Shown piece after piece: positions 5,389-8,790 of a stretch of DNA of 64,000 bases. Source of the stretch: Solirubrobacteraceae bacterium (GTDB taxonomy: Bacteria; Actinomycetota; Thermoleophilia; Solirubrobacterales; Solirubrobacteraceae). Below the pieces are notes generated by a model, which saw only the letters and a program-made list of their open reading frames with translations, had not been told where the DNA came from and ran no database searches. Made by a program: the position numbers and the translations under genes. Numbering within the stretch: position 1 is the stretch's first letter; the number at the start of each line of letters is the position of its first letter. Location: positions 1-64,000 of the forward strand of contig JAJCYD010000038.1 of assembly GCA_029263125.1 (NCBI GenBank), written 5' to 3'.

Positions 5389-6270
5389 TTGAGCCTGCGC
5401 AGCTTCCATCATTCGGAGTTTCCGGCCGATCGTCTGCGCGCCGAGCGCGAGGAGTCGATCTCGGTCTGCGTGCCCGCTCGCGAGGAGGCCGCGACGATCG
5501 CCGGGGTCGTCACGCCGCTGATCGCGCTACGCGAGGCGGGAGTCATCGACCAGGTCGTCGTCGTCGATGCGGACTCGGCCGACGGCACGGCGGCGATCGC
5601 GGCGCGGCTCGGAGCGGAGGTCCACAGTCAGGTCGAGCTCGTGCCCGACTGCGGGCCCGTGATCGGCAAGGGCGACGCGATGTGGCGCGCGCTGACGGTC
5701 CTGACCGGCGACCTCGTCTGCTTCGTCGACGCCGACAGCGACGACTTCGGCGAGCACTTCGCCTGCGGACTGCTCGGTCCGCTGGTGTGCGAGCCCGGCG
5801 TGCAGTTCGTCAAGGGCCACTACCGGCGCCCGTTTCGCGGCGACGACGGCGGGACGGCACCCGCCGGCGGCGGGCGGGTCACCGAGCTGACCGCGCGGCC
5901 GCTGCTGGCCGCGTTCTATCCCGAGCTGGCGGGCCTGCGCCAGCCGCTGGCCGGGGAGATCGCCGCGCGCCGCGACCTGCTGGAGCGCAGCGCGTTCTGC
6001 ACCGGCTATGCGGTCGAGATGGGCCTGCTGCTCGACGTCTACGCCGACGTCGGGCTGGCGGCGATGGCGCAGGTCGACCTCGACGTGCGCCAGAACCGCC
6101 ACCAGCCGATCGAGGCTCTCGCGCCGATGGCCGCCGCGGTCCTGGCAGCGGTCGTGTCCCGCCTGCGACGCGAGGAGCGGCTCGCCGGCGCGGCTCCGAC
6201 CGCAGTCGTCGACGAGGTGCTTGAACGCCCGCCGCTCGTGCAGCTGCGAGCGCTGCGCGGTCCGGCCTGA
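5389..6270 (+). CDS. gpgS: Glucosyl-3-phosphoglycerate synthase
   Basis: A GT-A (GT81-like) glycosyltransferase of 293 residues. Motifs are ISVCVPAREEAATI, VVVDADSADGT, the metal-binding CFVDADSDDFG, FVKGHYRRPF, GRVTELTARPLL and QPLAGE, all typical of GpgS. It transfers glucose from an NDP-glucose to 3-phosphoglycerate to make glucosyl-3-phosphoglycerate, the precursor of glucosylglycerate (a compatible solute, and a methylglucose lipopolysaccharide primer in mycobacteria). The start is TTG. A phosphatase gene follows 5 nt later, forming a two-step operon. Confidence 0.93.
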   Translation: MSLRSFHHSEFPADRLRAEREESISVCVPAREEAATIAGVVTPLIALREAGVIDQVVVVDADSADGTAAIAARLGAEVHSQVELVPDCGPVIGKGDAMWRALTVLTGDLVCFVDADSDDFGEHFACGLLGPLVCEPGVQFVKGHYRRPFRGDDGGTAPAGGGRVTELTARPLLAAFYPELAGLRQPLAGEIAARRDLLERSAFCTGYAVEMGLLLDVYADVGLAAMAQVDLDVRQNRHQPIEALAPMAAAVLAAVVSRLRREERLAGAAPTAVVDEVLERPPLVQLRALRGPA

Positions 6271-6275
6271 GCGCC

Positions 6276-7112
6276 GTGCGCGAGGATGTCGCCGTGCGCG
6301 CGCTGTACGTCGATCTCGACTCGACCCTGCTGGGGCCCGATGGCGCGCTGCTGCGCGGCGGCGACAAGCAGTTCTCGCTGCTCGGGGTGCGCGCGCTGGA
6401 GGCCTGCCACCGCGCCGAGGTCGAGGTCGTGCCGATGACCGGACGGCGCAAGGCCACGGTCGCCGAGTTCGCGCGCCTGTTCAGCCTGCGCGCGTACATC
6501 TACGAGGCCGGGTCGTGCCTCGTGCTCGACGGCGAGGAGCTGTGGCTGACCGGCGACCTGCTGCCCGGGGAGCAGGGAACGATCCACGACCAGATCGAGG
6601 CCTCGGGCGCGCCCGCGATGCTGCTCGAGCACTACGCGGGGCGCTTGGAGTACCACGACCCCTGGCATGACGGCCGCGAGGTGTCGCATCTCTTTCGCGG
6701 TCTCGTCGACGCGCGGGAGGCCGACGACGTGCTCGCGCGGACCGGGCACGGCGCGCTGCGACTCGTCGACAACGGCGGCGTGCACCGGCGCTCCCCGGAC
6801 CTTGTGGGCCTCGAGCAGGTGCGCGCCTACCACCTCGTCCCGCGCGGGGCGTCGAAGGCCAGCGCCGTGGCGCGGCACATGCGCGCGCGGATGATCACCC
6901 CTGAGGAGGCGATCGCCGTCGGCGACTCGCGCGAGGATCTGGAGACCGCCACCCATGTGGGGGCGTTCTGGTTCGTCGCCAACGCGCTGGAGCGCGACCC
7001 GACGCTGCGCGAGGCGATCACCGGACGCTCGAACGTGCACGTCGCCGAGGGCACGCACGGCGCGGGCGTCTACGAGGCCGTCGTCACGACGCTCGCGCGC
7101 CGCGACTGCTGA
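6276..7112 (+). CDS. HAD-family phosphatase, probable glucosyl/mannosyl-3-phosphoglycerate phosphatase
   Basis: A 278-residue Cof/IIB-type HAD enzyme. Motif I is YVDLDSTLLG (nucleophile Asp), motif II-like is PMTGRRKATV, and motif IV is AVGDSREDLE. Coupling to gpgS makes removal of phosphate from glucosyl-3-phosphoglycerate the likely reaction, as in MpgP enzymes. The best-known mycobacterial GpgP is of the unrelated histidine-phosphatase family, so this is the other solution to the same step. GTG starts are possible at 6276 or 6294 (directly before RALYVDLD). Confidence 0.82.
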   Translation: MREDVAVRALYVDLDSTLLGPDGALLRGGDKQFSLLGVRALEACHRAEVEVVPMTGRRKATVAEFARLFSLRAYIYEAGSCLVLDGEELWLTGDLLPGEQGTIHDQIEASGAPAMLLEHYAGRLEYHDPWHDGREVSHLFRGLVDAREADDVLARTGHGALRLVDNGGVHRRSPDLVGLEQVRAYHLVPRGASKASAVARHMRARMITPEEAIAVGDSREDLETATHVGAFWFVANALERDPTLREAITGRSNVHVAEGTHGAGVYEAVVTTLARRDC

Positions 7113-7363
7113 GTCAGCGGGAGGCTATCGGCGACTTCGGGGTGCTCGTCCTCCGGCGCGCGGGCGACGACCTCCTCGGCGGCGGGCCCAACGGCGACCA
7201 CCCCGAGGGAGAAGGCGGCGAGGGCAGCCTTCAGGGGCGCGGCGGCGCCGGCATGCTCTTGGACCGCAAGCACCGCAAGGACCGCAAGGACCGCATCCGC
7301 CGCCGCGAAGACGTTCGCCGCGGCGCCACCCGCCGGTAGTAGCGCGCGCGGCTGCTGATTCAC
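7070..7363 (-). CDS. Hypothetical Ala-rich small protein (doubtful)
   Basis: A 97-residue frame rich in Ala and Val with one hydrophobic stretch (VLAVLAVLAV). It is not recognised. The point in favour is that its GTG start overlaps the TGA of the ice-binding gene (GTGA). Against it are the overlap with 43 nt of the phosphatase gene on the other strand, low complexity, and the hydrophobic stretch arising from a 9-bp tandem repeat. It could be chance in GC-rich DNA. Confidence 0.25.
   Translation of the reverse strand: MNQQPRALLPAGGAAANVFAAADAVLAVLAVLAVQEHAGAAAPLKAALAAFSLGVVAVGPAAEEVVARAPEDEHPEVADSLPLTQQSRRASVVTTAS
7262..7297. repeat. 9-bp tandem repeat (4 units)
   Basis: Four units of GACCGCAAG or near copies run head to tail between the phosphatase gene and the ice-binding gene. 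This is a simple slipped-strand repeat; no function is visible. Confidence 0.7.
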
Positions 7364-8790
7364 CGCGTCGTGACGTACCGTCTCAGCGCTGCCCCCCCGA
7401 GGACCATCAGTGCTGCGGCGATCAGCACCCAGAGGATGGTCATGCCCGTGAACGGGAGATCCGGTGAGCCCGTGCTTGTGCCGGTGGTTGTGCCATCGCC
7501 GCCCGTCCCGGTCGTCGATCCAGGGGTCTGGGTCGTGTCATCGGACGCCTCATCGGACTCCGTTCCCGGCGTGGCGGTGGTGCCGCCGGCGCCAGGACCG
7601 GTGCCCGGCGTGGTGGAGGTGCCGCCCGCGCCAGGCCCGCTGCCCGGCGTCGTGGTGCCGCCGGCGCCGGGCCCGGTCCCCGGTGTGGTGGTGGTGTTCG
7701 CAGCGGCCGGGGTGATCACGATGTCGGCAGTCGCGGTGCCCGACGTACCGTTGCTGCTTGTGACCTGGTAGGTAAAGCTGTCGGATCCTGCATAGCCGGC
7801 GTCGGGTGTGTACTCGACGGTGCCCGCCGCCTGATCGATCGGTGCGAGAGATCCGTGGGACGGACCACTGCCGACCGCATAGGTCAGTGGCGCCCCGGTC
7901 GTGTCGTTGGCGACCAAGTCGACGGTCACCGGTTGTCCTACGGCCGTCGTCGCTGAGGTGTCCATCACTGATGGTGGGGTCGGAGCCTGCGTCGAACACT
8001 CGGCGCGGGTGATCCTGTTGGTGTCGAGGGTGACGGCGGCGTTGCGCGCCAGCGCTCGGCCATGGAGCGTCGCGCCGGTCTTCATCGAGATGGCGGTCAG
8101 TGCCAGGATGTTTCCGACGAACTGGGTCGCTGTCTGGATGGTTGCCGAGCTACCGACCTGCCAGAACACGTTGCACGCCTGAGCGCCGTTTCGAAGCAGC
8201 ACCCTGGTGTTCGGGATGCCCGATGTCGTCCCGGCGGCGGTGATGAGTGTGCCCGTCTTCGCCTGAAAGACGAACACCGAGTCTGGATCGCCGCCGCCGT
8301 CAAGCGTCAAGTCGCCGCCGACAGCGATGTCCGCCGCAGAGGTGTAGACGCCGGCGACCAGCGTCTGGCCGCCTCCGAGCGGCGCCGAGATCGCGGCGCC
8401 TCCCGTACGCCCGAACGCATTGTCGTAGGCGATCGTCAAATCGCTCTGGGCCTGTAGGGCGACAGCGTCCGCGGCGTGCATCGTGCCCGCCGTCAGAATT
8501 CCGGGTGGAAAGCCCGTCACGGCCGACCCCGGGCTCACACCAAGGTCGCCGCTGATAAGGCTGGGCCCCGTATTGGTAACGGTGCTGCCCGCCAGGACCG
8601 CGAAGCTCTGAGTGGTGCCCAAGGGCACCTCGGCCGCCCCAGCGCTCGAAGCGAGCAGACCCATGACCAGCAAGACCGCCAGCGGGCTGAGCGCCAGTGG
8701 CAGTGACCGCCGGCCACCGAACCGACCGTGTACGCGACGGCGCCCGCCGCACACCGCAACGGCGGTAGGAAGGTTCGCGAACGCCATCAT
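7360..8790 (-). CDS. Cell-wall-anchored ice-binding protein (DUF3494) with Ig-like domain and LPFTG signal
   Basis: A 476-residue modular surface protein. A signal peptide follows an Arg-rich n-region (hydrophobic about residues 30-50). The DUF3494 ice-binding beta-solenoid covers about residues 57-265, with DLTIAYDNAFGR, NGAQACNVFWQVGSSATI, FVGNILALTAISM and GRALARNAAVTLDTNRI. A cadherin/Ig-like domain follows (about 275-360, ending DSFTYQVTSSNG), then a linker with three GTGPGAGGT-type repeats. The C-terminal sorting signal is LPFTG, a hydrophobic helix and a basic tail. DUF3494 proteins bind ice; the anchor suggests an adhesin-like or cell-envelope role. Base composition looks less GC-rich than the flanks, so acquisition is possible. 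Confidence 0.92.
   Translation of the reverse strand: MMAFANLPTAVAVCGGRRRVHGRFGGRRSLPLALSPLAVLLVMGLLASSAGAAEVPLGTTQSFAVLAGSTVTNTGPSLISGDLGVSPGSAVTGFPPGILTAGTMHAADAVALQAQSDLTIAYDNAFGRTGGAAISAPLGGGQTLVAGVYTSAADIAVGGDLTLDGGGDPDSVFVFQAKTGTLITAAGTTSGIPNTRVLLRNGAQACNVFWQVGSSATIQTATQFVGNILALTAISMKTGATLHGRALARNAAVTLDTNRITRAECSTQAPTPPSVMDTSATTAVGQPVTVDLVANDTTGAPLTYAVGSGPSHGSLAPIDQAAGTVEYTPDAGYAGSDSFTYQVTSSNGTSGTATADIVITPAAANTTTTPGTGPGAGGTTTPGSGPGAGGTSTTPGTGPGAGGTTATPGTESDEASDDTTQTPGSTTGTGGDGTTTGTSTGSPDLPFTGMTILWVLIAAALMVLGGAALRRYVTTR

What the first reader, a model, noticed from the sequence alone, without database searches (positions are those of the whole stretch)
7360..8790. Wall-anchored ice-binding protein with Ig-like domain and GTGPGAGGT repeats
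DUF3494 ice-binding domain, cadherin/Ig-like domain, Gly/Pro/Thr repeats and an LPFTG sorting signal occur in one protein. Most DUF3494 proteins are secreted; surface anchoring by sortase suggests ice adhesion or cell-surface ice control in an actinobacterium. The gene appears less GC-rich than its neighbours, consistent with transfer, which is common for this family.
Basis: partly seen in the sequence, partly recalled or inferred. Interest (0 to 1): 0.6.

Follow-up and report, generated by a model that had tools for sequence, protein, structure and literature searches.

The report
Sortase-anchored ice-binding-type surface protein
A soil-type actinobacterium encodes an ice-binding-type protein that is very probably fixed to its cell wall; this is a known kind of protein, but its close relatives carry an apparently undescribed short tag (…FTG) at their very C-terminus instead of the usual wall anchor.

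Summary
In detail: window 7360-8790 (-) encodes a 476-aa protein with signal peptide, DUF3494 domain (PF11999, E 6e-57), Big_9 Ig-like domain, three imperfect TPGTGPGAGGT repeats and an LPFTG-TM-RR tail. The modelled domain (pLDDT 93) matches solved ice-binding proteins at Z 35, rmsd 0.9-1.2 Å, and keeps a small-residue B-face, including the two positions shown to matter in AnpIBP. The genome has one sortase (nearest class E) and three LPxTG-TM tails found, all LPFTG; in six relatives an LPFTG-TM gene sits near the orthologous sortase. Wall anchoring is well supported; ice binding is likely but untested. Recent transfer is not supported. Sortase-anchored Ice_binding 'fibrillar adhesin-like' proteins are already a listed kind (PMC8286594). 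Unexpectedly, 23 of 24 main-clade DUF3494 relatives sampled in the order end exactly in [F/Y/L][T/A]G-COOH with no membrane helix. The PxFTG-COOH terminus is enriched on unrelated secreted proteins in this order and occurs in other actinobacterial families, without dependence on a sortase. That looks like an undescribed C-terminal signal; the window protein is the exception that uses LPFTG.

The parts
7360..8790 (-). gene of the DUF3494 - Big_9 - LPFTG protein, 476 aa
8635..8790 (-). signal peptide, residues 1-52 (cleavage near SAGA|AE)
   Evidence: sequence: Arg-rich n-region, hydrophobic core LALSPLAVLLVMGLLASSAGA
8008..8598 (-). DUF3494 / Ice_binding domain (residues 65-261)
   Evidence: PF11999 E 6.1e-57; model matches 7bwy/6eio at Z 35/34.8
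8134..8151 (-). B-face strand SSATIQ (residues 214-219), equivalent of AnpIBP S153-G158
   Evidence: alignment, mapping, residues from PMC7277481
7720..7977 (-). Big_9 Ig-like stalk domain (residues 272-357)
   Evidence: PF17963 E 1.6e-15; Z 9.6-12 to adhesin, cadherin and phage collar Ig-like domains
7565..7696 (-). TPGTGPGAGGT repeat linker
   Evidence: 39-bp tandem repeat, 3.5 copies
7444..7458 (-). LPFTG sortase motif (residues 445-449)
7363..7443 (-). hydrophobic helix and basic tail MTILWVLIAAALMVLGGAALRRYVTTR
   Evidence: maximum hydropathy 2.5

Best explanation
A secreted, sortase-anchored surface protein. After export through its signal peptide, the LPFTG-helix-RR tail holds it in the membrane; the single class E-like sortase cuts at T-G and attaches it to the wall. 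The Gly/Pro/Thr linker and Big_9 domain act as a short stalk that presents the DUF3494 beta-solenoid outward, where its small-residue B-face binds ice crystals or ice-like water, tethering the cell to ice or limiting recrystallisation at the cell surface. Shown by computation: domain composition, fold, retained face residues, presence of the sortase, genomic link of LPFTG to this sortase family. Inferred: the actual anchoring reaction, ice binding, and the benefit.
For: PF11999 and Big_9 matches. Model pLDDT 93.3; the top 25 PDB entries are all DUF3494 ice-binding or antifreeze proteins, Z 30-35. 22 of 27 outward B-face positions are A/G/S/T (20 of 27 in AnpIBP); the AnpIBP positions S153 and T156, whose replacement by Tyr cut activity to 17%, are S214 and T217 here. 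One sortase with His (AGHRT) and Cys (VLSACHPLY) contexts, nearest NCBIfam class E, 127 of 160 bits. Of 28 LPxTG codon matches in the genome, only three have a membrane tail, all LPFTG. In G002, G014, G043, G049, G055 and G085 an LPFTG-helix-RR gene lies within a few kb of the orthologous sortase.
Against: No ice assay. Close homologues occur in many mesophilic actinomycetes (Streptomyces, Nonomuraea, Nocardiopsis) that keep the same face residues, and PF11999 is reported from ice-free habitats (PMC12337378), so ice need not be the ligand. One outward B-face position is Lys and two are Asp. The sortase is below the class E cut-off and its gene is on another contig; tail models are below cut-off.
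Confidence: 0.6

Rival explanations
1. A wall-anchored adhesin of the same architecture whose DUF3494 face binds something other than ice (mineral, polysaccharide, another cell).
For: Homologues at 55-65% identity in mesophilic soil actinomycetes; PF11999 found in caves, sediments and vents, and described as putative ice- and substrate-binding (PMC12337378); Ice_binding counted among adhesive domains (PMC8286594).
Against: Face composition resembles proven ice-binding proteins; the solved relatives in the top 25 are ice-binding or antifreeze proteins, mostly from cold organisms.
Confidence: 0.3
2. A secreted or membrane-held ice-binding protein whose LPFTG is not processed; the helix is only a membrane anchor or the protein is shed.
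For: Tail models below curated cut-off; most DUF3494 relatives in the order have no membrane tail at all.
Against: Three LPFTG tails plus one sortase in the genome and LPFTG genes near the sortase in relatives.
Confidence: 0.1
3. A recent horizontal acquisition.
For: GC3 0.81 against 0.88 on average; patchy presence (26 of 101 genomes of the order); no shared gene neighbourhood with relatives; DUF3494 is known to move between taxa (PMC7783341, PMC6892780).
Against: Within one SD for GC and GC3; two others in the same genus carry the domain; the tree nests it with order members at 100/99 and 95/84.
Confidence: 0.08

Closest known systems
Sortase-anchored fibrillar adhesin-like proteins with Ice_binding domain (PMC8286594)
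   Same: adhesive Ice_binding domain at the N-terminal side, Ig-like stalk (Big_9 also named as a stalk domain), LPxTG anchor at the C-terminus
   Different: only one stalk domain here, so a short protein; motif is LPFTG; not tested experimentally
EfcIBP (PDB 6eio) and AnpIBP (7bwx/7bwy)
   Same: DUF3494 fold, Z about 35; small-residue B-face with Ser/Thr at the tested positions
   Different: no stalk or wall anchor is described for those; this one has both
Marinomonas primoryensis MpIBP ice adhesin
   Same: ice-binding module on a surface-anchored protein (PMC7616799, PMC5014055)
   Different: MpIBP is about 1.5 MDa; its ice-binding domain is a different, RTX-type fold and the host is Gram-negative (own knowledge)
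DUF3494 proteins with PEP-CTERM (PMC9957290)
   Same: DUF3494 joined to the host's C-terminal sorting signal
   Different: PEP-CTERM in Gram-negative hosts; LPFTG here, FTG-COOH in relatives

Membership tests
DUF3494 / Ice_binding (PF11999) | profile match above the gathering score over the whole domain | tested here: met
   193.1 bits against 28.7; profile 1-208 of 208
DUF3494 / Ice_binding (PF11999) | discontinuous beta-solenoid braced by a long helix | tested here: met
   model helix 60-77 and strands; Z 35 to 7bwy, rmsd 0.9 over 201 residues
Active ice-binding protein | B-face of small residues with key Ser/Thr | tested here: met
   22 of 27 outward positions small; S214 and T217 kept. Mapped by sequence alignment; flatness not measured on coordinates
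Active ice-binding protein | thermal hysteresis, recrystallisation inhibition or ice affinity | not testable with these tools
   needs an assay
LPxTG sortase substrate | signal peptide, LPxTG, hydrophobic helix, basic tail | tested here: met
LPxTG sortase substrate | curated anchor model (PF00746 or NCBIfam) above cut-off | tested here: not met
   10.6 of 20 bits; 22.7 of 27 bits. Not a defining feature of the reaction; it lowers only the automatic annotation
LPxTG sortase substrate | a sortase in the same genome | tested here: met
   one PF04203, 111.7 bits
Class E sortase (NF033747), for the genome's sortase | score above the subfamily cut-off | tested here: not met
   127 of 160 bits, yet the best of all classes; called class E-like only
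Fibrillar adhesin-like protein | adhesive domain plus stalk domain plus anchor | tested here: met
   Ice_binding + Big_9 + LPFTG; definition from PMC8286594

The most novel reading that the evidence does not exclude
FTG-COOH (typically P-x-F-T-G at the extreme C-terminus, no membrane helix) is an undescribed C-terminal sorting or attachment signal of secreted proteins in the window's order and some other actinobacterial families, independent of classical sortases. DUF3494 proteins that live in this order carry it in place of an LPxTG anchor, and the window protein is a lineage in which it was exchanged for LPFTG-helix-RR.
Probability: 0.45. Interest if true: 0.75.

Novelty: new member of a known kind. 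Interest (0 to 1): 0.45.

Why it matters
The window protein is a compact candidate for a wall-bound ice adhesin in a poorly studied actinobacterial order, with the sortase and its LPFTG motif identified. Beyond that, comparing it with its orthologues exposes a recurrent FTG-COOH terminus on unrelated secreted proteins. If that is a real sorting signal, these bacteria have a surface-display route with no membrane-spanning tail and no classical sortase, and orthologous pairs (LPFTG tail versus FTG-COOH) make it directly testable.

Tried and rejected
Transfer by composition: within one SD. FTG-COOH as a classical sortase substrate: 9 of 19 genomes with an in-frame PxFTG-COOH ORF have a PF04203 sortase against 50 of 82 others, Fisher p 0.31; 4 of 8 named genomes with DUF3494-FTG-COOH have none, though some of these assemblies may be incomplete. 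FTG-COOH as stop-codon readthrough into a membrane tail: 71 cases show no consistent hydrophobic stretch downstream in any frame, and both TGA and TAG occur (TGA is favoured by the search pattern). FTG-COOH as chance: permuted PxTFG-stop gives 6 hits against 43 in the same 101 genomes, and none of the six looks like the secreted-protein ends seen with FTG. A dedicated enzyme next to FTG-COOH genes: the only neighbours recurring in many of the G376 and G009 stretches were short-chain dehydrogenases, a very common family, so no lead. FTG-COOH in the window's own genome: no convincing secreted example. Known models for the FTG-COOH ends: none beyond generic Ig-like, DUF11 or enzyme domains. Literature: PRFTG none, Thermoleophilia + sortase none, DUF3494 + sortase none; the library holds open-licence papers only.

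Full report
Observation. The ORF at 8790..7360 on the minus strand encodes 476 aa. It has an Arg-rich signal peptide, PF11999 at 65-261 (E 6.1e-57), Big_9 at 272-357 (E 1.6e-15), a 39-bp tandem repeat of 3.5 copies that encodes TPGTGPGAGGT, and LPFTG followed by a hydrophobic helix and RRYVTTR.

Fold and face. A model of residues 50-365 on a 35-sequence alignment has mean pLDDT 93.3. The best PDB matches are all DUF3494 ice-binding proteins: 7bwy Z 35.0, rmsd 0.9, 201 residues; 6eio Z 34.8, rmsd 1.2. The Ig-like part matches adhesin, cadherin and phage-collar Ig-like domains at Z 9.6-12. Using the ice-binding residues published for AnpIBP (PMC7277481) and the phmmer alignment, 22 of 27 outward B-face positions are A, G, S or T (20 of 27 in AnpIBP), and S153 and T156, whose replacement by Tyr cut AnpIBP activity to 17%, correspond to S214 and T217. 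The same face residues are conserved in relatives from mesophilic soil actinomycetes, so they do not prove an ice ligand; PF11999 is also reported from ice-free habitats (PMC12337378).

Anchoring. The genome holds one sortase (PF04203). Its best NCBIfam class is E at 127 bits, under the cut-off of 160; His and Cys contexts AGHRT and VLSACHPLY are shared, with small changes, by an order-wide family at 45-70% identity. Of 28 genomic matches to an LPxTG codon pattern only three lead into a membrane tail, and all three are LPFTG (the pattern demands G or C at third positions, so rarer codons are missed). In six other genomes of the order an LPFTG-helix-RR gene lies within a few kb of the orthologous sortase. 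I therefore take LPFTG as the substrate motif of this sortase family and the window protein as its substrate. Curated tail models stay below cut-off.

Origin. GC 0.689 and GC3 0.809 lie within one SD of 51 window ORFs. In a 109-row tree the domain groups with L008, L009 and L227 (the last from the same genus) at 100/99 and in a 12-row clade of the same order at 95/84. DUF3494 occurs in 26 of 101 genomes of the order and in 3 of the 4 sampled genomes of the genus. Recent import is not supported. The order is taken to be Solirubrobacterales because the closest named relatives are; the window's genome itself is unnamed.

What is known. Ice_binding as an adhesive domain with stalks and sortase anchors is listed in a survey of fibrillar adhesin-like proteins (PMC8286594); DUF3494 with PEP-CTERM is described from the Arctic Ocean (PMC9957290). 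The window protein is a new member of that kind.

Unexpected: FTG-COOH. Reading the complete C-termini of relatives showed that the closest ones do not have an LPxTG tail. L006 and L007, which share the DUF3494-Big_9 architecture, end ...AHTPPGFTG and ...HKTPAFTG, and L227 of the same genus ends ...TPRSPSFTG. In the order sample 23 of 24 main-clade DUF3494 proteins other than the window's end in [F/Y/L][T/A]G-COOH; the exception, L210, has LPKTG near the end of the held stretch. A second, distant DUF3494 clade in the order (L229-L233) does not show it where the end is readable. On the DUF3494 tree this label needs five changes (shuffled mean 26.5): separate DUF3494 lineages resident in the order share it, which fits a host signal more than a family trait.

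The ending is not limited to DUF3494. The codon pattern for P-x-F-T-G-stop gives 43 hits in 25 of 101 genomes of the order, 0 for the reversed pattern and 6 for the permuted P-x-T-F-G-stop. About 22 of the 30 loci read are plausible protein ends, mostly secreted proteins with an Ig-like, DUF11 or Arg-rich C-terminal part, one on an amine oxidase. In 296 genomes of the phylum one family (f45) stands out: G376 has 14, on proteins with Thr/Pro/Ala-rich linkers ending ...TPRFTG. In the G009 contigs examined, terminal PxF[T/A]G is about 200 times the rate expected from internal occurrences (4 against 0.02); those contigs were chosen because they held hits, so this figure is inflated. The ending is not tied to a sortase, not explained by readthrough, and no model in Pfam or NCBIfam covers it. 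I propose a C-terminal signal that does for these hosts what LPxTG or PEP-CTERM does elsewhere; the recognising machinery is unknown. The window's genome, with LPFTG-helix tails and no convincing FTG-COOH ORF, looks like the exception.

Verdict. The given finding is real and mostly correctly read, and ordinary in kind; interest comes from the LPFTG-sortase link and from the FTG-COOH pattern that the comparison uncovered.

Noticed in passing
L006-L009, L011, L051, L064, L205-L228 and L086-L115 (C-terminal ends): Secreted proteins in the window's order, DUF3494 and unrelated ones, end exactly in PxFTG-COOH (or [F/Y/L][T/A]G) with no membrane helix; 43 pattern hits against 6 for a permuted control in 101 genomes.
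   Followed up: yes
L147, L148, L165, L166, L168, L169, L177-L186 (G376, G231; another family of the phylum): Fourteen PxFTG-COOH matches in one 3.9-Mb genome, mostly ...TPRFTG after Thr/Ser/Pro/Ala-rich linkers on different secreted proteins.
   Followed up: partly
L158 (G106): Three tandem related secreted proteins, each ending ...EPTFTG-COOH.
   Followed up: no
L110 (G082): A flavin amine oxidase-type protein with an Arg-rich tail ending ...RRRRPSFTG-COOH.
   Followed up: no
L012, L013, L014, L039, L048: DUF3494 proteins of Streptosporangiaceae and other actinobacteria end ...NLRVAG, ...GGFRTTG, ...GNLPVTG, ...VPVTG exactly at the C-terminus, i.e. LPxTG-like motifs without a tail.
   Followed up: no
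L003, L004 (own genome, C14:74725 and C14:109263): The two other LPFTG-helix-RR proteins of the genome look like paralogues with DNDGDGxxDxxDPGC repeats.
   Followed up: partly
window 5389-7112: Convergent with the ice-binding-type gene lie a glucosyl-3-phosphoglycerate synthase (NF010496, 329.9 bits against 262) and a HAD-like phosphatase gene, perhaps for the compatible solute glucosylglycerate; not found beside DUF3494 in relatives.
   Followed up: partly
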